Shown here: positions 5,938-37,376 of the stretch, one piece after another
How positions within the stretch are numbered: the first letter of the stretch is position 1
Layout: each line of letters opens with the position of its first letter
Assembly: GCA_040905475.1 (NCBI GenBank)
Contig: JBBDRM010000064.1
Coordinates: 1-37,376, forward strand
Length of the DNA: 37,376 nt
Source: Actinomycetota bacterium
Lineage (GTDB): Bacteria; Actinomycetota; AC-67
Direction of reading: 5' to 3'
Notes under the pieces: generated by a model
The model's input: only the letters and a program-made list of their open reading frames with translations
What the model was told of the DNA's origin: nothing
Database searches by the model: none
Translations under genes and position numbers: made by a program

Positions 5938-7149
5938 GTGAGGATCGCCATCATCGGGCTGGGCGCTATGGGTCAGCCGATCGCTCGTCGCCTCGCGGCG
6001 GCCGACGCGCTCGAGCTCACCCTCTACGACGTCGATCCCGCTCGCGCGGACGCGCTCGCCGGGCTGGGCCGCAGGGCGACTTCGGTTGCCGACGCGATCT
6101 CGGACGCAGATGTCATCCTGACGATCCTGCCCGCCGACGAGCACGTCCGGTTGGTCGCGGACGAGCTAGCCCCTTCCGCCCGGCCGGGGCAGGTATACGC
6201 AGACCTGAGCACCATCGCACCCGGCACCATCGAAACGGTCGCTTCCACGCTCGCAGATGTCGGAGTAGCGGCGGTCAGTGTCTCGATCACGCGCGGCACG
6301 CAGGCCGCGGCGGCAGGAGAGCTTGCGCTCTTCGTCAGCCGCGACGAGCCGGCGCTCCGGCCGGCCCTCCAGGCGATCGCCTCCGAGCTGCGGTTCGTCG
6401 AGGGACTCGGCGCCGTCAAGGCGCTGAAGATCGCGAACAACATTGTCGTCGCCTGCAGCAACATCGCGATCTGCGAAGCGCTCGTCCTCGGCAAGCTACT
6501 CGGCCTCACTCCGCAGGCGATCGCGACGCACCTCGGCGAGCACGGAGCCGAGAGCTGGGTGCTCAGCAACCACATCGTCGCCTTCGTTCTCCCCGGAGAT
6601 CTTGGGCCTGGCCACTTCAGCACGCTGAACATGGCGAAGGACGTTCGCCTCTTCCTCGAGCTCGCGGATGAGCGCGGAGTCGTGTCACCGATGGCCGGCG
6701 TCGCTGCGTCCTGTTATCGCGGGACGATCGCGGCTGGATTCGGCGAGAATTACCACCCGATCGTGATCCGCTGGCTCGAGCGGATCGCGAGCGCAGCCAC
6801 GAGACTTCGGCCTTTGGCACGATCCGAGGCGGAGGTGCTGGCTCGGATCGCACGGGGTGTTACCGCCGCTCAGGCGATGGCCAGTCTCGACGCGCTCGTC
6901 CTGCTTGATCGGTTTGGCATCGATTCGCATTCCGCGGCGGGCCACCTCGCGAAGGGCTCTGCAGGCAACGCCACGCTCGCGTCCGTCGCGCGACACGCTG
7001 GCCGCGACCATGGAGCGTACGACCCTGGTGCCTCCTCCGAGGCGCTCCAGGCCATCCTCGAGCTCGCCGAGGAGGCCAGCGCTCCCCTCTTCATGCACGA
7101 GGCAGCCCGGACCGCCGCGCTCCTCGCAAGCTCGCTCGATCGCACGTGA
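5938..7149 (+). CDS. Beta-hydroxyacid dehydrogenase (HIBADH-like) with extra C-terminal helical domain
   Basis: A 403-aa NAD(P)-dependent beta-hydroxyacid dehydrogenase. The Rossmann motif GLGAMG is at 7-12, DLSTIAPG at 89-96, and the catalytic Lys is Lys164 in KIANN (164-168). The canonical protein of about 290 aa would end near residue 285; here a further 115 residues follow. This extension (about 300-400) resembles the preceding helical domain: an EAL/DAL-LG pattern, an HLxxxxA segment, then an LELAxE-P stretch, suggesting internal duplication of the all-helical dimerisation domain. It presumably oxidises a hydroxyacid to an aldehyde or ketoacid. The GTG start lies downstream of the divergent operator; the stop overlaps the next gene in GTGA. 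Confidence 0.85.
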   Translation: MRIAIIGLGAMGQPIARRLAAADALELTLYDVDPARADALAGLGRRATSVADAISDADVILTILPADEHVRLVADELAPSARPGQVYADLSTIAPGTIETVASTLADVGVAAVSVSITRGTQAAAAGELALFVSRDEPALRPALQAIASELRFVEGLGAVKALKIANNIVVACSNIAICEALVLGKLLGLTPQAIATHLGEHGAESWVLSNHIVAFVLPGDLGPGHFSTLNMAKDVRLFLELADERGVVSPMAGVAASCYRGTIAAGFGENYHPIVIRWLERIASAATRLRPLARSEAEVLARIARGVTAAQAMASLDALVLLDRFGIDSHSAAGHLAKGSAGNATLASVARHAGRDHGAYDPGASSEALQAILELAEEASAPLFMHEAARTAALLASSLDRT

Positions 7150-7820
7150 GTTCCACGGCGGTGACCTTCGGGCTTGTCCACGGAGGCGCGCACGGCGCGT
7201 GGTGTTGGGAACGACTCATCCCCGAGCTCGAGCGTCGCGGTCACCGCGCGATCGCGATGGACCTGCCGTGCGAGGACGAGGGGGCCGGCGCCGCCGAGTA
7301 CGCGACCGTTGTGGTCGATGCGTTACGCGAATTCGAGGAGCCGGTCGCGCTCGTGGGCCACTCGCTGGCAGGGTTGACGATTCCCCTCGTGGCACACGCT
7401 CGCCCCGTGCGTCGCATGATCTTCGTCTGTGGCCTCCTTCCAGAGCCGGGGCTCAGCTTCCGAGACCAGCAAGCGGCAGAGCCGGACATCCTGTTCCCGT
7501 ACAAGGGCGGGCGAGCCGGCCTGCGCGACCGCTTCTATCACCACTGTGCCCCTGAAGATGCGGACCGGGCGATGGAGCGCATCCGGGACCAGGCTCTCAA
7601 GCCCTACGTCGAAGTCACTCCACTAAAGGAGTGGCCGGGCGTTCCAGCCGGCTACGTGCTCTGCACGGAGGATCGCGCCTCCAACCCGGCCTGGAGTCGT
7701 CGCGTGGTGCCCGAGCGGCTCGGGATCCGACCAATCGAGCTTGTGGGCTCCGACCATTCTCCGTTCCTGAGCCGGACGAAGGAGCTCGCATGCGTGCTCG
7801 AGGACCTGGCGACGAGCTGA
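7146..7820 (+). CDS. Alpha/beta hydrolase (hydroxynitrile-lyase/esterase type)
   Basis: A 224-aa alpha/beta hydrolase of the compact EstC/plant methyl-esterase/hydroxynitrile-lyase-like group. Seen: the oxyanion region HGGAHGAWCW at 12-21, nucleophile elbow GHSLAG with Ser73, an acid candidate in CTEDRAS near residue 178, and the catalytic His in GSDHSPF near the C-terminus. Expected role is hydrolysis of an ester, lactone or CoA thioester in the cytoplasm; no signal peptide is present. The GTG start overlaps the stop of the dehydrogenase gene by 4 nt, so the two are co-translated. Confidence 0.85.
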   Translation: MSSTAVTFGLVHGGAHGAWCWERLIPELERRGHRAIAMDLPCEDEGAGAAEYATVVVDALREFEEPVALVGHSLAGLTIPLVAHARPVRRMIFVCGLLPEPGLSFRDQQAAEPDILFPYKGGRAGLRDRFYHHCAPEDADRAMERIRDQALKPYVEVTPLKEWPGVPAGYVLCTEDRASNPAWSRRVVPERLGIRPIELVGSDHSPFLSRTKELACVLEDLATS

Positions 7821-7821
7821 T

Positions 7822-7847
7822 GTACGCATCTGCGTGCAACCGTATAC
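7822..7847. promoter_or_regulatory. Two overlapping predicted GntR operators before the ThDP gene
   Basis: Two 16-bp palindromes overlap here: GTACGCA-TC-TGCGTGC (7822-7837) and GCGTGCA-AC-CGTATAC (7832-7847), with centres 10 bp apart, one helical turn. Both fit the cluster's GYRYRC half-site rule. They sit 2 bp after the hydrolase stop and 46 bp before the ThDP enzyme start, so this gene may have its own regulated promoter inside the rightward group. Confidence 0.6.
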
Positions 7848-7893
7848 TCGCACGGCGCGTGGCTCTCCCTGCGAACGTAAGACTGGTCGCTCG

Positions 7894-9537
7894 ATGAAGG
7901 TCTTCCACGCCCTCGCCGAGGCGTTTGTGGCCGAAGGAACCTCGATGGTCTTCACCATGATGGGCGACGCCAACATGCACTGGCTGAACGCCGTCTACGA
8001 GCTCGGCGTGCGGATCGTGGACGTCCGGCACGAAGGGGCGGGGTTGGCGATGGCCGACGGCTGGGCCCGTGTGAGGGGCGAGCCCGGGGTGTGTTCGACG
8101 ACGAGCGGACCGGGGTACGCGCAGCTCGCGACGACGATGGTCGTGGCCAGCCGCGCTCGCTCCCCGCTCGTGGCCTTCTGCGGCGACGTTGCCGTCAGCG
8201 ACGACGAGAACGCCCAGGTCTTCGACCAGCGGCGCTTCGCCGAGGCGACCGAAGCGAGGTTTGTTCGCCTGTCCTCTGCCGACGACGCGCAGAAGGTAGT
8301 CCGGACCGCCTTCTATCGCGCCCGCCTCGAGTCCCGGCCGATCGTGCTCAGCGCGCCCGAGGACATCCAGCAGGAGGAGTTCGACGAGCAGGAGTACGTG
8401 GCGTCGTCCTCGTTCTTCCCGCAAGCTCCTCCTGCGCCGAATCCCGAGCGCCTGCGAGCCGCAGCGGAGATCATACGGGCGAGCGAGCGCCCCGTCCTGA
8501 TTCTGGGAAGAGGCGCCATGCAGGCGGGAGCCGGCGAGGTCGCCCGCCGCCTAGCCGATCGGATCGGTGCCCTTGTGACGACCACACTCGTCGCCAAGAA
8601 CTGGCTCAACGACGACGACTACCACGCCGGCATCTCCGGCGCGTACGCGACGAGGACCGCGCTCGAGCTCTTGCAGGAGACCGACTGCGTCATCGCGGTC
8701 GGGGCGAGCCTGAACCAGTATACGACGGGGCTCGGCTTCGCCTATCCGCTCGCGCGCTATATCCACATCGACTCCCGCCCGCACGTCGTCATGGGTGGAG
8801 GCCGTGCGGCGGAGTGCTACATCCAGGCGGATGCCAAGCTCGGGCTCGAGGCGCTCGACGAGCTCTTGTCGGCGGAGTCCGTCCGCTCCACGGGCTACCG
8901 GACGCGCGAGGTCAAGGAGCGGCTGGCAAGTGCTCTCTATGACGAGTCAGTCGTCGAGCTCGAACCGGGGACGGTGGATCCGCGCGCCGTTTGCCACCTC
9001 CTCGACAACCTGATCCCGCCCGAGATGGGGCTCGTGCTCGGCAGCGGACAGCAGGTGCGATTCGGGACGATGCTCCTGCAACGGCAGCGGCCTTTCATCG
9101 TCGCGCAGCATCACTTCGGCTGCATCGGGCAAGGATTGACGACGGCCATAGGCGCGGTTCTCGCCACCGGGACGCCTGCGTTCCTGATGGAGGGGGACGT
9201 GGGGCTGATGATGCATCTCGCCGAGTTCGAGACCGCGGTCCGCTACAAGGTCCCCCTCCTCGTCGTCGTCATGAACGACGAGGCAGTGGGGGCGGAGCTC
9301 CACAAGTCGGCGGCGATCGGCCTCGACAGCTCCCTGGCCGAGATTCCCACTCCCGACCTCGGGCAGGTGGGTGTCAGCCTCGGCGGACGCGGCGCGCTCG
9401 TCCGGTCGATCGACGCTCTGCGAGAGGCCGCCGCCGCGTTCGTCGAGGACCCTGGTCCGATGCTGATCGACGTCCGGATCTCGCGAGAGGTGCTGAGCAT
9501 CCCCTATCAGCGCATGTACCGCGACGCAGACGTCTGA
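7894..9537 (+). CDS. Thiamine-diphosphate-dependent enzyme (acetolactate synthase/2-oxoacid decarboxylase family)
   Basis: A 547-aa three-domain ThDP enzyme. The N-terminal PYR domain carries the catalytic Glu47 in VRHEGAG, the central domain begins near residue 170, and the C-terminal PP domain has the metal/ThDP motif starting EGDVGLMMH and ending in VVVMND, a variation on the GDG...NN consensus. The family decarboxylates 2-oxoacids or makes/breaks C-C bonds next to a carbonyl. I chose ATG 7894 over an upstream in-frame GTG at 7834 because the longer frame would overlap the operator and the extra residues do not look like protein. It belongs to the rightward group behind two dehydrogenase/hydrolase genes. 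The substrate is not evident. Confidence 0.87.
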   Translation: MKVFHALAEAFVAEGTSMVFTMMGDANMHWLNAVYELGVRIVDVRHEGAGLAMADGWARVRGEPGVCSTTSGPGYAQLATTMVVASRARSPLVAFCGDVAVSDDENAQVFDQRRFAEATEARFVRLSSADDAQKVVRTAFYRARLESRPIVLSAPEDIQQEEFDEQEYVASSSFFPQAPPAPNPERLRAAAEIIRASERPVLILGRGAMQAGAGEVARRLADRIGALVTTTLVAKNWLNDDDYHAGISGAYATRTALELLQETDCVIAVGASLNQYTTGLGFAYPLARYIHIDSRPHVVMGGGRAAECYIQADAKLGLEALDELLSAESVRSTGYRTREVKERLASALYDESVVELEPGTVDPRAVCHLLDNLIPPEMGLVLGSGQQVRFGTMLLQRQRPFIVAQHHFGCIGQGLTTAIGAVLATGTPAFLMEGDVGLMMHLAEFETAVRYKVPLLVVVMNDEAVGAELHKSAAIGLDSSLAEIPTPDLGQVGVSLGGRGALVRSIDALREAAAAFVEDPGPMLIDVRISREVLSIPYQRMYRDADV

Positions 9538-28434: not shown

Positions 28435-28481
28435 TGGAGCGTGCCGGGATCGAACCGGCGACCTCCGGCTTGCAAAGCCAG
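28435..28481 (-). pseudogene. 3' fragment of tRNA-Ala(UGC), probable attachment site
   Basis: On the minus strand, 47 nt form a complete anticodon arm (CTGGC, loop TTTGCAA with anticodon TGC, GCCGG), a variable loop, a T arm (GCCGG-TTCGATC-CCGGC) and the acceptor 3' strand ACGCTCC plus discriminator A. U at position 70 fits the alanine G3-U70 identity pair. No D arm and no 5' acceptor strand GGGGCGT precede it; the adjacent sequence only weakly resembles a 5' end. Such 3' halves are typical of att sites left by tRNA-targeting integrative elements. The element would lie on the high-coordinate side if this is the chromosomal copy. Confidence 0.7.
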
Positions 28482-28760
28482 ATACACGCTTCCCGGGCCG
28501 ACCCCGTCTGGCCGGGGATTCCCGCCACGAGCAGGTCTTTTCACCCGTCGTCTTGCGGGGATCGGCGGGTGCGGCCGGGGCATTCCGGCGATCTCGTGCG
28601 GGATGTGTGCGGGATGAAGTCGTTCTCTGGGCTGTGAACACTTCTCTGCCTTAATCCGTCAGCAGGGGCGCCAACTCCTGAGGCTCAGGAGAAGTGTTAC
28701 GCCGCCAGTGAAGGCCGCGTTGAGAAGAAGGCCGCGTTTGGCCCAGCCCCGTGCCCGTCT
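28482..28760. other. Intergenic region beside the tRNA fragment
   Basis: No gene is supportable. The plus-strand frame over the tRNA fragment reads like the familiar spurious antisense-tRNA peptide. The second direct repeat (28589-28607) lies here. Together with 28080-28434, which also lacks a convincing frame apart from the first repeat, this makes about 680 bp of element-boundary sequence. Confidence 0.45.
28589..28607. repeat. Direct repeat copy 2 (flanks tRNA fragment)
   Basis: GCGGGATGTGTGCGGGATG, one mismatch from the copy at 28206-28224. It lies 108 bp beyond the 5' side of the tRNA-Ala fragment. Confidence 0.5.
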
Positions 28761-29694: not shown

Positions 29695-30396
29695 GTGCGG
29701 AGGCCTCAGCTGATCCTCGCTCTTCTGCGAAGTGGTCTCGCAAAGGTGTTTGCGGTCAGCCTGGCCATCACTGCTCTGGCCGCAATACCGGCTTTCGCTC
29801 CAGTGGGATCATCGCGTAGCACCTCCGGAGCGTCGACCGCCTCGTGGGTGGCAACGGCAAAGGAGAGGTTGTCAGACCTCGACACGAAGTCTGCCGGATC
29901 CATGACCGGGTACTCACGGGATAGGTTCGGACGCGAGTGGTTCGATGTGGATCTGAATGGCTGCAACACGCGCAACGACATACTCGCTCGCGACTTGAGA
30001 CAGGTCGTCTTCAAGCCCGGTTCCGATTGCGTCGTGGCCAAGGGAACGCTGCGCGACAGATACACCAACACGACGATCGACTTCGTCCAGGGGGCCGCGT
30101 CCTCCAAGGTCGACATCGACCATGTGGTCGCTCTTGCGGCTGCGTGGAGGACCGGCGCCAAGCAATGGACCGCTAACCAGCGGCTCTTCTATGCGAACGA
30201 CAGCTTAGTACTCCTTGCGGTTGATGGTCCCGCGAATCGGCAGAAGAGCGATGGCGACGCGGCCGACTGGTTGCCGCGAAATCGTGGTTATCGGTGCCGG
30301 TACGTGGCAAGGCAAATCGCCATTAAGACGAAGTACGACCTGTGGGTCACGCAGCCGGAGCGGATGACGATGTCCGACGTTGTAAGTGACTGCTGA
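29695..30396 (+). CDS. Secreted HNH-type nuclease, DUF1524 family
   Basis: A 233-aa exported protein: signal segment at about 12-36 (KVFAVSLAITALAAIPAFA), Ser/Thr-rich linker, then the DUF1524/HNH domain. The beta-beta-alpha-metal core is visible: IDHVVAL with catalytic His143, WTANQRLFYANDSLVLLAVDG with Asn168, and NRQKSDGDAADWLP with Asn181/Lys184, followed by CRYVARQIAIKTKY. These proteins are common secreted actinobacterial nucleases. Cysteines at 90 and 112, and a C-terminal pair, may form disulfides. GTG start at 29695. It could supply nutrients from DNA, modify biofilm or serve in competition; no immunity gene is obvious next to it. Confidence 0.88.
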   Translation: MRRPQLILALLRSGLAKVFAVSLAITALAAIPAFAPVGSSRSTSGASTASWVATAKERLSDLDTKSAGSMTGYSRDRFGREWFDVDLNGCNTRNDILARDLRQVVFKPGSDCVVAKGTLRDRYTNTTIDFVQGAASSKVDIDHVVALAAAWRTGAKQWTANQRLFYANDSLVLLAVDGPANRQKSDGDAADWLPRNRGYRCRYVARQIAIKTKYDLWVTQPERMTMSDVVSDC

Positions 30397-31196: not shown

Positions 31197-32765
31197 ATGT
31201 CTGATACCACGTGCGCGGTCTTTGCGAGGGATGTCACGCTCGATCGGGAGCGCATCCACCGCTTCGTCGTCGGTGAGGACGCTGCGCCTACGCCGATGAC
31301 GACCGCCGAGGCAGCACAAGAACTCGGCGACCGGTTCGCGACAGACGTTCTGCTTCAGGGCGTCTTCCCGGTCACGGCGGAGGCCACGGTCGACGCGATC
31401 AAGGCCGCCGTTCCGGACGGCGACCCGCTTCGCGACCAGATGACTTTCATTCTTGGCGAGGGAAGCCAGATCCCGTTCAGCCAGGCTCCAGCCCTCGGTC
31501 GCAGCCTCCGCTTCGTCGTGACCCTTGGCGCGACGTCGAATGGACCACCGGAGGGGCCGGACATCCTGATCAGCGTTCCGCATCCCGAAAGCACCGGCAT
31601 CGAGCTCATGGCGTGGGACCTCGAGGCGAAGGGCTTCAACTACTACCGCTCCATGGGAGATCCACCCGCGTGGGTCTTCGCCGGCAATTCGCGGCATGCG
31701 CTCGTCGACCCGACACAGGGCAAGGGCCCATTTGAGAGCCACAAGAGCGGGGCGCTGCTGATGAAGGAGCTAAAACGTCCTTGGCTCCACTGGGATTCCT
31801 CAGACGTGCACATCGAGGCGACGGCGTTCGCAGCCGGGGACGATCGGCGAACGCATGCGTGGTTCACCGGCAAGCAGATCGGAGGTGCATACGCCTTCGA
31901 GTTCGAGGTTGCGAAGCCCGCAATGCAGCGCTGGGCGAAGGCTCGGTTCGAGGCGCTCCTCGCGAACGGGGGCGCGATCGAGCGACCGGCGCGGATCATG
32001 GAGCAGCTCCTCGACACGCCCGCGGTCAACCTCATCACAAGCAGGCGCGAGAGCGCGAGCGCCAGCGCGTCACCCGAGCCGCTGGCCTTGCCCGGGACGT
32101 TCTTCATCGACGCCGACGGCCTCGCAATCGTGCAACTGGAGGGACCGCCTCAGTTCACGGTGCGCGCCGAGGTGTACGCAAGGAGCCTCGAGACCTTCGA
32201 CGTGAAGCTTGCAGACGGGCCGGGCTTCGTCCAAGACGGAGACACGCACTTCGCCTTCGCGGTCCCAGAACGCGCCTTCGAGGATCTGGTGGTGCTTCAG
32301 AAGGCATTGGAGATCGGCCTGGTGAGCAGACGGCTCGCGGCCTGCCTGCTCATGACGGACTTCCCGAACCCGATCTTCTCCGATCGACGCCCCGCGTTGC
32401 TCGCGCGCGTCCCGCCGACGGCTCAGGTGACGGACGGCGGCAGCTCGTTCTCCGAGGAGATGGCCAATGCCATCCTCGCGGAGGCGCCAGACGCTGGAGC
32501 TGGAAGTCCGGAGCAAGAGTTCGCCGAGCTTTGGAACGTTGGCGAGGACTTCGAGGATCAGTTCAACGCTCTTCTGCGCGACTACTACGAAGCGGTGAAC
32601 GCTCGGCTCGCGAGCCAAGCGGGATTCGATGACTACTTTCGGCTCGCGGAGTCGCGACGCCAGCGCGTGAAGCAGACGCCGATCTTCGAGAGCCCGCTGC
32701 TCTTCGCGAACACGAACATCCCGCCGGTCTCGCTCTCGATGCAGCGCGACGGGACGGTGGTCTAA
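31197..32765 (+). CDS. Unknown 522-aa protein of the peroxidase-associated cluster
   Basis: A 522-aa, apparently cytosolic protein with no signal peptide or membrane segment; I do not recognise the family. The most conserved-looking part is residues 121-210: PDILISVPHPESTG, then FNYYRSMG (147-154), WVFAGNSRHAL (159-169) and a GPFESHKSG...PWLHW segment (177-199) rich in His, Trp and acidic residues, which might bind metal or haem. A Ser/Ala-rich linker lies near residue 285. The C-terminal region is acidic and helical. It is followed after 2 bp by the 328-aa gene, so the two form an operon. A weak GCAGGG precedes the start. Confidence 0.8.
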   Translation: MSDTTCAVFARDVTLDRERIHRFVVGEDAAPTPMTTAEAAQELGDRFATDVLLQGVFPVTAEATVDAIKAAVPDGDPLRDQMTFILGEGSQIPFSQAPALGRSLRFVVTLGATSNGPPEGPDILISVPHPESTGIELMAWDLEAKGFNYYRSMGDPPAWVFAGNSRHALVDPTQGKGPFESHKSGALLMKELKRPWLHWDSSDVHIEATAFAAGDDRRTHAWFTGKQIGGAYAFEFEVAKPAMQRWAKARFEALLANGGAIERPARIMEQLLDTPAVNLITSRRESASASASPEPLALPGTFFIDADGLAIVQLEGPPQFTVRAEVYARSLETFDVKLADGPGFVQDGDTHFAFAVPERAFEDLVVLQKALEIGLVSRRLAACLLMTDFPNPIFSDRRPALLARVPPTAQVTDGGSSFSEEMANAILAEAPDAGAGSPEQEFAELWNVGEDFEDQFNALLRDYYEAVNARLASQAGFDDYFRLAESRRQRVKQTPIFESPLLFANTNIPPVSLSMQRDGTVV

Positions 32766-32767
32766 CG

Positions 32768-33754
32768 ATGTCGACGTTGACGATGTTCTCCACGCCGGGG
32801 AACGTGCCGGACAACCACCCGGCTGCTTGGAGCGACACGGTCGCCGGCTTCCTCGAGAACGTCGCGGCGGCGGGTGACTTTCCGCAGTTCTACAACCCGA
32901 CGGTTGTCGACACACCCGACGACGCCGTCGTCGCGCGTGTCGTGTGGCCCGCCTTCCCGGCGAGCTTGGCCGGCCCACCCAGCCAGCGCCTGGCGATTGC
33001 CGACAAAGACCGCAGCACGCAGGACGAATATTGCGAGTGGGCGGTCGAAAAGAACGAAGCGGAGAAGATTACGCGGGTGACGTTCACAACGGAGGTGCCG
33101 GAGTACTTCGACCACCTGTTCCGGTCGGACCCCGATGCTCTCCTCACCCTCTACCGAGAGCTGGTCGGCCCGCAGGTGGAGCCCGGTGACCTCACACAAG
33201 ATGGCTTCTATCTGCGCGAGAACATCTGGAATCAGTTGCTCGACAGCACGCGGCCCGTCCATCTCATCCAGGACAGCAACAAGCTCATCGCGGCACTCGT
33301 GCTCGCGGCCGAGGCCACGATTCTCCGCGAGCGTGACGGAGTGCCAGTTACGCATCCGCAAGCGCTCGTCGACTGCGCGGGGCTGGGGAATCCCTTGCGT
33401 GGAAGCGACCCCCAGATCGCAGCGGCGGTGAACAATGCCGCGGCGACCGGCGCCGAGATCACGCTGAACGATCCGGTCGGCCTGTACATCGACGGCTTGA
33501 TCACCGGTGGCATGGAGACACCGGACGAGGTGGACCCGGCGACCTTCTGGACCGTCGACCGCGGCGACGCCGACCGCGCCGTCAGAGCCTCGTTCGAGGT
33601 TCCGGAGGGCCGTGGGTACGTCGTGGGTGAGGTCAAGATCGACGGTCAGCCGATCGCCTTCGGCGGCCAGCTTGCCGTCCGGGTTCGCGTCAGGATCGAA
33701 GCGCTCGTCAAGCCGGGGCAGCACCAGCCGGACCGACAACCCTGCTCGAACTAG
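32768..33754 (+). CDS. Unknown 328-aa protein, homologue of the 398-aa gene at 34964-36160
   Basis: A 328-aa soluble protein. Against the 398-aa protein on the other strand, conserved blocks occur in the same order: QDEYCEW (85-91) with TRVTFTTEVPEY (102-113); QDSNKLIAALVLAAEA (168-183); CAGLGNPLRG (203-212); NDPVGLYI (234-241); FEVPEGRGYVVGEV (276-289); IAFGGQLAV (296-304). I know no function for this family. Its stop shares a CTAG with the stop of the convergent peroxidase gene. Shared neighbourhood with a DyP peroxidase suggests a redox or haem-linked role, which is inference only. Confidence 0.85.
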   Translation: MSTLTMFSTPGNVPDNHPAAWSDTVAGFLENVAAAGDFPQFYNPTVVDTPDDAVVARVVWPAFPASLAGPPSQRLAIADKDRSTQDEYCEWAVEKNEAEKITRVTFTTEVPEYFDHLFRSDPDALLTLYRELVGPQVEPGDLTQDGFYLRENIWNQLLDSTRPVHLIQDSNKLIAALVLAAEATILRERDGVPVTHPQALVDCAGLGNPLRGSDPQIAAAVNNAAATGAEITLNDPVGLYIDGLITGGMETPDEVDPATFWTVDRGDADRAVRASFEVPEGRGYVVGEVKIDGQPIAFGGQLAVRVRVRIEALVKPGQHQPDRQPCSN

Positions 33755-34956
33755 CGCTCGGCCTCGAAGAGGCGCGCGCCGGGGAACGGTCTGGCTCGCG
33801 AAGGAACGGCGTAGAGCCCACCTGCCTGCACGCGGACGAGGGTCGGGCCCGCGCCGCCCGGTTGCGACGGTCCGCCGAAGTTCACGTCGCCGAGCCATCC
33901 CGGGAGGTGGAGAACGTGATGGAGCGCGGCGAGGTCGCGCTGAAAGCTGACGAAGTTGAGCCCCAAGGCTGGACGCCCGTGCTCGAATCCGTCAAGAAAG
34001 TCGTAGCCCTGCCGTAGCATCCGATGTGCTCCGGCGGCAGCCGACGAGGCTCGATTCTGGTTCGCGCGGTGAATGTGGGAGGCCTCGAGAATCGGATCCA
34101 CGGTCTGCGGAGGGTCGCGCCAGGCGGCCAGGTGCTCGGTTGAGTCCCCCGCTGGAGCCGGTCCGGCCACGGGGACCGGTCGCCCCTTCTCGTCTTTCTC
34201 GACCGCGACGAGAGCGGCCCCCGACAGCTTGTCGCGGCCGACGAGCAGCTCCTGATCGCCCCGCTCGAGCGCTCGCCAGGCGCCGAGGTCGATCGCGAGC
34301 CGCAGGAAGGCCATGAACGTGCCGTCGGCCATCCACGCGGGATCGGGTCGGGCTTGGAGCGCGTCGAGCCTCTGGCTCGACTCCATGTTGCTGACCCCGT
34401 CGTGGAACTCGAGCCAACCGCGACCGTCGTGTCGCCCGAATCCGCCGAACGAGGAGACAATGTCGAGGGGCAGACGCCTGTCCTCGATCAGCTTCCAGAC
34501 CTCGACGACTGCGCAGTTCACCCCCGCCTCGCGAGCGCTCGTCAGCTGGAGGGCCACGTCCGCCTCGCCGCGGTTCGGCGCCGCGTTCTCTGCCCAGCGA
34601 AGGCTCGGGAAGGGCCCGGGATTGCTTGGCAGGTTGGAGAGATAGTCCGGGCGCTGCGCCCGGGTCAAAGGCGGATTGTGCACGTCTAAGTCGAAGAAGC
34701 GCCGTCCATAACCGATCAGCGCGCGCAAGCTTGAGAATTGAGCTGCGCTCGCTCTGGCGTGCTTCTCCGGTTGACCAGCCAGCTCCCGCACCTGTCCGCG
34801 TCTCAGCTCCTGCAGCATGCGCAGGATCTCCGCGAGGGCGTCGCGGGCGGTGATCGAAGCTGTCTCGGGCGCGACGTTCAGAAGGACGAGCCGGAAGCAT
34901 GGCTGCGGTCGCCTGCGTGGCTGGAACGCAATGCCTTGCTGAAGTCGACGCGGCAT
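33751..34956 (-). CDS. DyP-type (dye-decolorizing) haem peroxidase
   Basis: A 401-aa DyP-type peroxidase. The distal GxxDG motif appears as EFHDG (183-187, Asp186, first Gly replaced by Glu) in LEFHDGVSN; the proximal haem-ligand His is His294 in EASHIHRAN; the typical GTFMAFLRLAIDL...W...GRDKLSG block (212-246) and the closing GLNFVSFQRDL (332-342) are present. DyPs use H2O2 to oxidise phenolics, dyes or small acids, or act in deferrochelatase-like roles. No Tat or Sec signal and no encapsulin-type tail are seen, so it is probably cytosolic. Start 34956, 7 bp after the stop of the 398-aa gene. Confidence 0.9.
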   Translation of the reverse strand: MPRRLQQGIAFQPRRRPQPCFRLVLLNVAPETASITARDALAEILRMLQELRRGQVRELAGQPEKHARASAAQFSSLRALIGYGRRFFDLDVHNPPLTRAQRPDYLSNLPSNPGPFPSLRWAENAAPNRGEADVALQLTSAREAGVNCAVVEVWKLIEDRRLPLDIVSSFGGFGRHDGRGWLEFHDGVSNMESSQRLDALQARPDPAWMADGTFMAFLRLAIDLGAWRALERGDQELLVGRDKLSGAALVAVEKDEKGRPVPVAGPAPAGDSTEHLAAWRDPPQTVDPILEASHIHRANQNRASSAAAGAHRMLRQGYDFLDGFEHGRPALGLNFVSFQRDLAALHHVLHLPGWLGDVNFGGPSQPGGAGPTLVRVQAGGLYAVPSRARPFPGARLFEAER

Positions 34957-34963
34957 TAGACTC

Positions 34964-36160
34964 TTACGCCTCTTCCTCGAACTCAGTGAACCGCTGTTCG
35001 TGGTTGCGAATCCGGGCGCACCCTTCGGCGTCCTCCACGGCCGCTTCGACTGCGGCGGGCTTCGCGCGATCGACGGCGGCTGTTCCGGACTCCCCGACGC
35101 GAAGAAAGACGGCGAGCTGTACGAGGTCCGCCACCTGGCCGCCGTGGCGGATCGGCTGCTCAGTCGCAACGTCGACCAGATCGCCGACCGAGAATCCCTC
35201 CTCCGGTGGCACTTCGAACGTCAGCCGCTGGTAGCGGGGCCGTGCGTCCGGCGACATCTCGGCCGAGATGCCGCGACCGAAGGTGAACCAGTCTGGCGGG
35301 ACCACGGCGCCGGTCGGCGTTCGCAGGCGTGTGTGCTCGACGCTCTGTATATAGACTCCGACCGGGTCGTCGAGTGCGACCAAGCGCCGCTCGAACGCGA
35401 GCCTGGCCAGACGCTCGACGAGGATCGAGTCGCTCGCCCGGCCGAGCTGCGCGGCTCCCCTGAGCAGCGGAATCGCTTCCCAACACGTCAGACACCGCGC
35501 GCCGCCGTTCGCAATATGAACGAGGCGCGCGTCGAGAGCCGCGGCGGCCAGCATCACGAGCGCGCCGAGCGAGTTCGTGGACTGCGTCATGAAGCAGAGA
35601 GCCCTCTCTCCGTTGTTGTAGGCGCTGCGGCCGTCGGGTGGGAGCATCGTCCCAGCGAACGATCGCTCGCGCTCGTTGGGCGTGATCCCGTCCGCGTACG
35701 GATCGCAGGCCCCATAGACTGCCTCCGTCGGTACCGCGGACTCGCGCGCGAAGTCCGCTACGGTCTCGACGAGCGTCTCGGGCTCGTAGGCCGCGAGTAC
35801 TCGCCAGTACTCCGAGAGTTCCGTCGTGAGCTCGACGCGGGACATCTGCGTGCCGGTGCGAACGACGCGCCACTCGATGTACTCCTCCTGCAGTTGGCGT
35901 CCGCCCCCGCCGACGTCCTCGCTCCGCCAGTCGAGGAGCTGAAGTGCCCTCTGCCTGTCCAAGCACGATGCGACTCTCGCTGGAAGACCTGTCCAATCGG
36001 GGCCCGTGATCGAGCGCGTCCTTTTGTCAGGCGTCGGCAGTAGGAACGGCGCGGCTGCCGGTGACCCGTCGAGAGCATGGCCGATGGCGCCGGCGACGCG
36101 CTCGTTCCACTCGCGGCGGGCGGCTCTCCCCAGAGCGTTGAGCGCGCCCGGCTCCTGCAT
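34964..36160 (-). CDS. Unknown 398-aa protein, homologue of the 328-aa gene at 32768-33754
   Basis: A 398-aa soluble protein. Blocks shared with the 328-aa protein are QEEYIEW (91-97) with SRVELTTELSEY (107-118), MTQSTNSLGALVMLAAAA (191-208), CWEAIPLLRG (226-235), DDPVGVYI (264-271), FEVPPEEGFSVGDL (315-328) and IRHGGQVADL (337-346). Unlike its homologue it has several cysteines (CLTCW around 223-227) and an insertion DPYADGITPNERERSFAG (153-170). ATG 36160 overlaps the preceding stop by one base. It lies directly upstream of the DyP gene, so the pair is almost certainly co-expressed. Confidence 0.85.
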   Translation of the reverse strand: MQEPGALNALGRAARREWNERVAGAIGHALDGSPAAAPFLLPTPDKRTRSITGPDWTGLPARVASCLDRQRALQLLDWRSEDVGGGGRQLQEEYIEWRVVRTGTQMSRVELTTELSEYWRVLAAYEPETLVETVADFARESAVPTEAVYGACDPYADGITPNERERSFAGTMLPPDGRSAYNNGERALCFMTQSTNSLGALVMLAAAALDARLVHIANGGARCLTCWEAIPLLRGAAQLGRASDSILVERLARLAFERRLVALDDPVGVYIQSVEHTRLRTPTGAVVPPDWFTFGRGISAEMSPDARPRYQRLTFEVPPEEGFSVGDLVDVATEQPIRHGGQVADLVQLAVFLRVGESGTAAVDRAKPAAVEAAVEDAEGCARIRNHEQRFTEFEEEA

Positions 36161-36446
36161 CAAGTCCGCGCCAGCCGTGAGCGGGCGAACTGCTCCGCCG
36201 CGGCGTCGGTCGTGACGCCGTCCGTGCGGGCGCGCTCGTAGATGGCGGTCAGGGTGTCTCCAATCCTCGCCAGCCGCGTCTCGACCCTCTCGCGTTTCCA
36301 GCCGAGCGATTCGACGTCCACGCATCGATGACGCCGCCGGCGTTGATCACACTCGGAACGGGATCGGGAGCTGCCACCTGCCTCAGCTCCTCGAGCAGCA
36401 TTTCTGCGAGGGGCGCGGCCTCCTCGGCGTCGAGAGTCGGGGTCAC
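36160..36446 (-). pseudogene. Frameshifted C-terminal fragment of a Leu/Glu/Phe/Val dehydrogenase
   Basis: Two adjacent frames together look like the last 80-90 residues of a leucine/valine dehydrogenase: frame one (from GTG 36446) carries VPSVINAGGVID, and after a shift near 36326 the other frame carries ESLGWKRERVE, RIGDTLTAIYERARTDGV and AAAEQFARSRLA, all in the family order. The N-terminal catalytic and most of the NAD domain are absent. Yet the fragment is coupled at both ends: GTGA with the upstream gene, TGATG with the downstream one. Either it is a remnant, a sequencing indel hides a small real gene, or it acts as a leader. Confidence 0.6.
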
Positions 36447-36910
36447 GGCGCATAGAAGGCGACCTTCGCGGCATCGTGGGCATCGGCCGTGACGTCGTAC
36501 ACCGGCGGCTCGATCCAGCTCTCGGGCGCGAAGAAAGGCTCGAGTCGCTGCTGTTCGTCGAGCTCATCGAGGATCTCCTCTAGCGCTTCGGGCCGAACCT
36601 GTACCGTAGAAACATCGCCGATCCGAAGCGGTCGCTCGCGGAGATTCTCGGGCAGCCGATGCTTGCCGAGGAACGTCTCCAGCTCTTCCCTTGGCGACCC
36701 GACCAGGTACGCGTCAGTCGCGCCGAAGAGAAGCCTGCCCTGCGCGTCCAACTCGGGCCACGCGGAGAGAGCAAGACCCACGGAGGAGCCAACGATCTCA
36801 TCGACGACGACGTAGTGAAAGCCTCCCATTCCCGGGGAGGCGCCCTCAGGTGTCCACGTCGTCGTTCGGTCGGACACGTCTTCTGAGGGCGGAAGGAGGC
36901 GCCGGTTCAT
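36443..36910 (-). CDS. Unknown 155-aa protein
   Basis: A 155-aa soluble protein I do not recognise. It starts MNRRLLPPSEDV, has a Gly-rich beta segment (GFHYVVVDEIVGSSVGLALSAW), a stretch of acidic helices (PEALEEILDELDEQQRLEPFF) and ends DAAKVAFYAP. The ATG at 36910 comes directly after the stop of the upstream gene and the stop overlaps the GTG of the next frame, so it belongs to the leftward peroxidase operon. No membrane segment or signal is seen. Confidence 0.7.
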   Translation of the reverse strand: MNRRLLPPSEDVSDRTTTWTPEGASPGMGGFHYVVVDEIVGSSVGLALSAWPELDAQGRLLFGATDAYLVGSPREELETFLGKHRLPENLRERPLRIGDVSTVQVRPEALEEILDELDEQQRLEPFFAPESWIEPPVYDVTADAHDAAKVAFYAP

Positions 36911-37376
36911 CTAGGGGCTCTCCGGCGGCGGGCCAAGCAAGGCGGTGAAACGCTCACTCGGCGGGAGCTCGACCCGCGGATAGGCGAGAAGGACGTGCAG
37001 GTTGGCCATCGCGAGCACATATCCGTGCTCGACAAGGTCGGCGGCGTCAGCAACCCCGATACGGCTAAGCGTGGTCTTGACTCCCCGAGTACGTCCCACC
37101 CGCTCATCCCACGCGTCTCGCGTATCCCCGAGCAGCTCGAGGATCGCGCGGGCGCGGGCGCCCTGCTCGTCGTCTCCGCCTGCGTAGCTCGTCGTGATGC
37201 GGAAGGGGCTTTGCGAGATCTGGACGATCGCGCCCCTCAGGGCTCCACCGCTTCGGAAGATGTCGAAGAGCCAGCGGCGGCGCGTGCTCGTCGTCGTGTC
37301 GTAGAGGATGTCGATGTCCCGCTTAAGCTGGACTGTCTCCGAGTTCTCCCGACAACCGGGGGGCCGATAGAGCTTT
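36911..37376 (-). CDS. Partial CDS running off the window, possible patatin-like lipase C-terminus
   Basis: The frame is open from the window edge to the stop at 36911, 155 codons, so the start lies outside. The C-terminal pattern ARAILELLGDT, then TTLSRIGVADAADLVEHGYVLAMANL, resembles the end of patatin-like phospholipases (…LINWGYAxxDAAL), preceded by a Trp/Phe-rich DIxILYDTTTS-RRRWLFDIFRSGG segment. The catalytic Ser/Asp dyad would be in the missing part, so the call is tentative. It is upstream of and adjacent to the 155-aa gene in the same operon. Confidence 0.5.
   Translation of the reverse strand, partial: KLYRPPGCRENSETVQLKRDIDILYDTTTSTRRRWLFDIFRSGGALRGAIVQISQSPFRITTSYAGGDDEQGARARAILELLGDTRDAWDERVGRTRGVKTTLSRIGVADAADLVEHGYVLAMANLHVLLAYPRVELPPSERFTALLGPPPESP

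What the first reader, a model, noticed from the sequence alone, without database searches (positions are those of the whole stretch)
31197..37376. Uncharacterised DyP-peroxidase gene neighbourhood with two homologous unknown proteins
A DyP-type peroxidase sits in a compact cluster with two members of an unknown protein family (32768-33754 and 34964-36160, sharing at least six ordered motif blocks), a 522-aa unknown with a His/Trp-rich core, a 155-aa unknown and a probable patatin-like lipase. None carries an export signal. That two divergent members of one family flank the peroxidase, each in its own operon, argues for a multi-subunit or substrate-relay system, perhaps peroxidative modification of a lipid or aromatic product. 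The DyP assignment rests on known motifs; the idea of a system is inference.
Basis: partly seen in the sequence, partly recalled or inferred. Interest (0 to 1): 0.78.

Follow-up and report, generated by a model that had tools for sequence, protein, structure and literature searches.

The report
Peroxidase with a co-evolving unknown partner
A soil bacterium carries a heme peroxidase of the DyP type beside a protein of unknown function, and the same two-gene pair has been inherited and transferred together across several bacterial phyla; this is strong evidence that the two work together and gives a handle on what such peroxidases do.

Summary
The genes are real. The two unknowns (U328, U398) are homologous, and the DyP has its catalytic residues. 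"Patatin" and the 155-aa protein are unsupported and not conserved with the cluster. U522 and U328/U398 match no Pfam, NCBIfam, PHROG or PDB family; PADLOC gives only one negligible hit.

The conserved units are two 2-gene modules: U522-U328 and U398-DyP. Of 30 U328/U398-family genes examined, 11 adjoin U522 (fused in two), 16 lie directly before a DyP gene on the same strand, and 3 have neither. Four of five members found after the rule was formed obeyed it. Partner and DyP trees mirror each other (Mantel r=0.89, p=0.0001) across Actinomycetota, Rhizobiales, Burkholderiales and cyanobacteria. The partnered DyPs are the top 7 of 73 related plasmid DyP records; the window's DyP subtype was never seen without the partner. 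The full four-gene, tail-to-tail set occurs in only three actinobacterial genomes.

U328 domains also occur fused to a subtilase and to PLD domains. Relatives lie near H2O2-producing oxidase genes on plasmids. Best reading: U328/U398 is a dedicated partner subunit or adaptor of intracellular enzymes, DyP foremost. Pairing is well supported; mechanism is inference. Structure prediction failed.

The parts
31197..32765 (+). U522: 522-aa protein of an undescribed family, large partner of U328
   Evidence: no Pfam/NCBIfam/PDB/PHROG/PADLOC match; homologues on plasmids always directly upstream of, or fused to, a U328 gene
32768..33754 (+). U328: member of an undescribed family (U328/U398), second gene of the U522-U328 pair
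   Evidence: same pair in L003, L006 and in 13 plasmid records
33751..34956 (-). DyP-type peroxidase, 401 aa, short EfeB-like subtype, catalytic Asp/His/Arg present; second gene of the U398-DyP pair. Stop codon overlaps that of U328 in a CTAG palindrome
   Evidence: PF20628 E=7.7e-17; conserved D257, H365, R386 (numbering of the 472-aa open frame); nearest solved structures EfeB/DyP E=3e-8; junction
34964..36160 (-). U398: divergent member of the U328/U398 family, directly upstream of the DyP gene
   Evidence: same pair in L003, L006, L023, L028, L052
36443..36910 (-). 155-aa orphan gene; not conserved with the cluster, probably not part of it
   Evidence: no match in Pfam, plasmids or related loci
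36911..37375 (-). C-terminal 154 aa of a gene cut by the contig end; the patatin assignment is not supported

Best explanation
Two co-inherited two-gene modules, convergent and end to end. Module 1 is U398-DyP: an intracellular heme peroxidase with a dedicated partner protein. Module 2 is U522-U328: the same partner family paired with a second, undescribed large protein. SHOWN by computation: homology of U328 and U398, intact DyP catalytic residues, near-exclusive adjacency of the family to U522 or DyP across phyla, and co-divergence of partner and DyP. INFERRED: the U328-type protein binds its neighbour physically and acts as a partner subunit or adaptor that holds, positions or brings substrate to the enzyme. 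It sits upstream of DyP and is N-terminal in fusions to a subtilase and to phospholipase-D domains. In many relatives the H2O2 for the DyP could come from nearby oxidases (LodA/GoxA, GMC, SolA-type). The product would be an oxidised or cross-linked peptide, protein or aromatic compound used in competition or defence by soil bacteria. My estimate is about 0.9 for functional pairing, 0.45 for a physical partner/adaptor role, and 0.2 for any particular product.
For: Adjacency: 11 U522-linked, 16 DyP-linked and 3 unlinked of 30 family members; all 13 U522 plasmid records have U328 immediately downstream. Out-of-sample: 4 of 5 new members have DyP immediately downstream. U522-U328 gene fusions in Azospirillum L008 and Microvirga L030. 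Mirror trees: Mantel r=0.887 p=0.0001 for 15 pairs; within the short-DyP set r=0.94 p=0.0014, within the long-DyP set r=0.61 p=0.0005; clades mix hosts (Streptomyces + Rhizobium + G460; Acaryochloris + actinobacteria). Specificity: the window DyP subtype has 2 plasmid relatives and both adjoin a U398 gene; of 73 plasmid records matching the long DyP, the 7 with a U328-family neighbour are the 7 best. U328 fused to a subtilase (L022) and to PLD domains (L014, L015). Redox neighbours LodA/ferritin-like/radical SAM/Trp-halogenase 18 of about 208 genes versus 1 of 266 in control stretches of the same plasmids, p=3e-6 (hand counts). LodA-like enzymes make H2O2 (PMC4699246).
Against: No structure: AlphaFold models had pLDDT 37 and 34, so the adaptor idea has no structural support. 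Three family members have neither U522 nor DyP (Paracoccus L013 beside a tyrosinase, S. sojae L031, actinobacterium G458 L051). The window's own genome has no LodA and no other DyP C-terminal-domain hit, so the H2O2 source there is unknown. The neighbourhood enrichment was counted by hand from product names on partly related plasmids. Co-inheritance shows selection for linkage, not physical contact.
Confidence: 0.5

Rival explanations
1. U328/U398 is a maturation or chaperone factor (heme insertion, or installation of another cofactor) rather than a subunit of the working enzyme.
For: Neighbouring loci are rich in enzymes that need post-translational cofactors and in their maturases: LodA with LodB-like FAD proteins, radical SAM, ferritin-like, tyrosinase. 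LodB has an important role in maturing LodA (PMC4699246). A dedicated chaperone would also co-diverge with its client.
Against: Other DyPs fold and load heme without such a factor (general knowledge). U328 is also fused to a subtilase and to PLD domains, which need no such cofactor.
Confidence: 0.2
2. U328/U398 is the substrate: a protein that the DyP (or U522) oxidises, cross-links or otherwise modifies, with the pair forming a modified structural or toxic protein.
For: Strict one-to-one adjacency and co-divergence; invariant Tyr and Trp residues (Y88, W91, Y113, W60, Y240) that a peroxidase could oxidise.
Against: The conserved residues are mixed acids, Asn, Arg, Gly and Pro like those of a folded domain. 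Fusion to hydrolases and pairing with a non-peroxidase protein U522 fit a substrate poorly.
Confidence: 0.12
3. The arrangement is only hitch-hiking: genes collected on plasmids and genomic islands of soil bacteria without functional coupling.
For: Most members lie on plasmids and transposases are frequent neighbours; the full four-gene set is sporadic (3 of 397 sampled Actinomycetota hold the family at all).
Against: Immediate adjacency in the same order in 27 of 30 cases over several phyla, mirrored trees, fusions and the top-7-of-73 specificity are not expected from hitch-hiking.
Confidence: 0.08

Closest known systems
DyP-type peroxidase superfamily (class I/EfeB-like for the window DyP; class V-like for the long subtype)
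   Same: Dyp_perox_C domain, catalytic Asp, proximal His and distal Arg
   Different: No Tat signal, no efeUO genes in the cluster, and a dedicated upstream partner of unknown family. The DyP review consulted (PMC8197335) names EfeUOB, encapsulin and CslA contexts in the passages read, none of them this one.
Encapsulin-DyP nanocompartment
   Same: A DyP with one dedicated partner gene beside it
   Different: Partner is not an HK97-fold shell by sequence; no Linocin_M18/encapsulin gene found in the genome; U328/U398 match no Pfam family.
LodA/GoxA-LodB quinoprotein oxidase loci
   Same: Related loci hold LodA, LodB-like flavoprotein, ferritin-like PF12902 and radical SAM genes; fungal lodA genes are also near ferritin-like genes (PMC4417212)
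   Different: The window's genome has no LodA_N match; U522/U328 are not described in the lodA survey passages read.

Membership tests
DyP-type peroxidase | Dyp_perox_C / TIGR01413 domain | tested here: met
   PF20628 62 bits against cut-off 20; TIGR01413 88.7 bits against cut-off 100.5, i.e. below that one curated cut-off
DyP-type peroxidase | Catalytic Asp in the GxxDG-type motif, proximal His, distal Arg | tested here: met
   D257, H365 and R386 (472-aa frame numbering) invariant in 11 of 11 aligned sequences
DyP-type peroxidase | Peroxidase activity with bound heme | not testable with these tools
   needs purified protein
EfeB / EfeUOB iron system | Tat signal and efeU/efeO neighbours | tested here: not met
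   N-terminus MPRRLQQGIAFQPRRRPQ has no hydrophobic segment; TIGR01412 59.5 bits against cut-off 428; no such genes among the ORFs beside it
Encapsulin-DyP system | Encapsulin shell gene (Linocin_M18) in the genome | tested here: not met
   no PF04454 match in G000 while controls ring; the genome is a 97% complete draft
LodA/LodB system | LodA_N domain protein | tested here: not met
   no PF17990 match in G000, G056 or G167; met only in other relatives' neighbourhoods (L030)
Known anti-phage defence system | PADLOC model match | tested here: not met
   no credible match for any window protein (best: Cas5 13 bits, E=0.013, for U398)

The most novel reading that the evidence does not exclude
U328/U398 is a general adaptor domain that recruits interchangeable enzymes (two DyP classes, a subtilase, phospholipase D, perhaps U522 as a new enzyme class) to one common target, forming an undescribed, mobile intracellular effector or modification system in soil bacteria.
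Probability: 0.15. Interest if true: 0.85.

Novelty: new variant of a known kind. Interest (0 to 1): 0.58.

Why it matters
The physiological role of most DyP peroxidases is an acknowledged open question (PMC8197335). A partner protein that co-diverges with two distinct DyP classes, and that alternates with a second unknown protein, gives a concrete test: co-express, pull down and delete. It also names two protein families absent from the domain databases searched and gives a genomic rule that predicted 4 of 5 new loci.

Tried and rejected
Structure prediction of U328 and U522 gave unusable models (pLDDT 37.5 and 34.4), so no fold search was run. Only window and the search for related loci sequences were allowed in those alignments, which made them too shallow. 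Profile searches against PDB gave only chance hits. hhalign found no relation between U522, U328 and DyP, so U522 as a divergent DyP is not supported at sequence level. Viral-contig scans found no relatives, nor did phage records. The encapsulin idea was rejected, and LodA as H2O2 source in this genome was rejected. Patatin and the 155-aa gene as members were rejected for lack of any conservation. A tRNA-attached island was considered: the fragment at 28435-28492 has no intact copy within 3 mismatches in the genome, so it stays a note. Literature searches found no description of the gene pairs.

Full report
What is there. The window is the whole of contig C64 of an actinobacterial draft genome, and the cluster lies at its 3' end. 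Four genes form the cluster: U522 (31197-32765, +), U328 (32768-33754, +), and on the other strand U398 (34964-36160) followed by a DyP peroxidase (33751-34956). The two pairs are convergent and their last genes share overlapping stop codons in the palindrome CTAG; the same CTAG junction is present in L003. The DyP carries Dyp_perox_C and the catalytic Asp, His and Arg, with no Sec/Tat-like N-terminus. U522, U328 and U398 match nothing in Pfam, NCBIfam, PHROGs or the PDB beyond chance, and nothing in PADLOC beyond a negligible hit for U398. U328 and U398 are homologous. The 155-aa gene and the truncated 154-aa gene beyond 36443 have no detectable relatives and are absent from the related loci; the patatin assignment could not be supported.

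Related loci. The same four-gene, tail-to-tail set occurs in an Actinomycetota MAG (L003; its U522 is cut by the contig end) and in G056 (L006), with U328, U522 and DyP 49-62% identical to the window's. In a sample of 397 genomes of the phylum only three hold the family. Outside Actinomycetota the genes are found on plasmids, mostly of rhizobia and their relatives, plus Azospirillum, Mycetohabitans, Paracoccus, Nostoc and Acaryochloris.

Two modules, not one. All 13 plasmid records with U522 have a U328 gene immediately downstream, fused to it in L008 and L030. Family members without U522 nearly always have a DyP gene immediately downstream on the same strand. Together with the five members found afterwards in the order of G056, the count is 11 with U522, 16 with DyP and 3 with neither, of 30. 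The five were an out-of-sample test: four have DyP next door (L048, L049, L050, L052) and one (L051) has not. In the window both modules lie together.

Co-divergence. In the family tree U398 belongs to a clade in which every member adjoins a short DyP subtype (window, L003, L006, Streptomyces L023, Rhizobium L028; also L052). The other DyP-linked members adjoin a long, class V-like subtype. For 15 partner-DyP pairs the two trees are strongly correlated (Mantel r=0.887, p=0.0001), also within each subtype (r=0.94 and 0.61), although the hosts are mixed: Streptomyces groups with Rhizobium, Acaryochloris with actinobacteria. From the DyP side, the window's subtype has only two relatives at E below 1e-5 in 72,556 plasmids, both beside a U398 gene. 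Of 73 plasmid records matching the long subtype, the seven with a U328-family neighbour are exactly the seven best. This is what a dedicated pair that moves as a unit would give.

Wider neighbourhood. U328 domains are fused to a subtilase in G167 (L022; part of that frame is masked in the record) and to phospholipase-D domains in L014 and L015. Genes for LodA/GoxA, ferritin-like PF12902 proteins, radical SAM and Trp-halogenase-like flavoproteins, and separately peptidases/lipases/PLD, are over-represented near the family compared with six control stretches on the same plasmids (18 of about 208 versus 1 of 266, p=3e-6; 21 versus 5, p=9e-5, counted by hand). The loci are not all independent, so these p-values are optimistic. 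LodA-type enzymes make H2O2 and are antimicrobial or act in biofilm differentiation (PMC4699246), and fungal lodA genes lie near ferritin-like genes (PMC4417212). The window's genome has no LodA and no other hit to the DyP C-terminal domain.

How it most likely works. Shown: pairing, co-inheritance, intact peroxidase active site, lack of export signals. Inferred: U398 binds the DyP and positions or delivers its substrate, and U328 does the same for U522. The N-terminal position of U328 in fusions suits an adaptor or substrate-binding role, and no His is invariant in the family, so it is unlikely itself to be a His-ligated heme protein. U522 has one invariant His and many invariant acidic residues and could be a metalloenzyme, but this is a guess. 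A maturation-factor role is the main rival; a substrate role and hitch-hiking are weaker ones.

What it is not. By the tests made it is not an EfeUOB system, not an encapsulin-DyP system, not a known defence system, and not viral as far as tested.

Limits. AlphaFold gave no usable model. Only Actinomycetota genomes and plasmid/phage/viral records could be searched systematically; one sequence-pattern scan of all GTDB species found only L003 and is insensitive to distant relatives. Absence from the literature rests on a handful of full-text searches in an open-access library.

Noticed in passing
window 28435-28492, - strand: tRNA-like fragment lacking the D arm (RF00005 26 bits, below cut-off; anticodon stem-loop and T arm intact, looks like tRNA-Ala UGC), with no intact copy within 3 mismatches in the genome. 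Together with lower GC at 28-30 kb it may mark the edge of a genomic island that carries the cluster.
   Followed up: partly
L022:10493-12784: U328 domain fused to an S8 subtilase in actinobacterial genome G167, beside U522, a lipase-like hydrolase, an animal-type heme peroxidase and a LodB/Trp-halogenase-like flavoprotein.
   Followed up: partly
L014:10001-12481, L015:9992-12481: U328 domain fused to a C-terminal region annotated as phospholipase D-like in Mesorhizobium and Microvirga plasmids; in L014 the PLD part hits PADLOC DrmC models.
   Followed up: partly
L024:9121-12645: Sinorhizobium meliloti SM11 plasmid DyP fused to a long leucine-rich-repeat region, directly after a U328-family gene.
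   Followed up: no
L012:6413-8305, L030:4915-6648: Proteins combining a weak LodA_C match with a Ferritin-like PF12902 domain, next to a radical SAM gene; possibly an undescribed oxidase architecture.
   Followed up: no
L013:9509-12809 and L031:5688-10906: U328-family proteins in Paracoccus denitrificans and S. sojae have neither U522 nor DyP; in Paracoccus the gene lies between a tyrosinase gene and a secreted-looking protein with a CxxCH motif.
   Followed up: partly
L051:8945-10192: U398-type gene in actinobacterium G458 without a DyP next to it, although G460 of the same genus has one: candidate natural loss of the peroxidase.
   Followed up: partly
L003:3802-5724 and 6531-8135: Downstream of U398 in L003 lie an M36 fungalysin and a protein with an HELVH zinc-site motif that resembles DUF4157 (resemblance from memory, not tested).
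   Followed up: no
window 29695-30396, + strand: Secreted-looking protein with a GmrSD_C nuclease-type domain (PF07510 E=5e-17) just upstream of the cluster.
   Followed up: no
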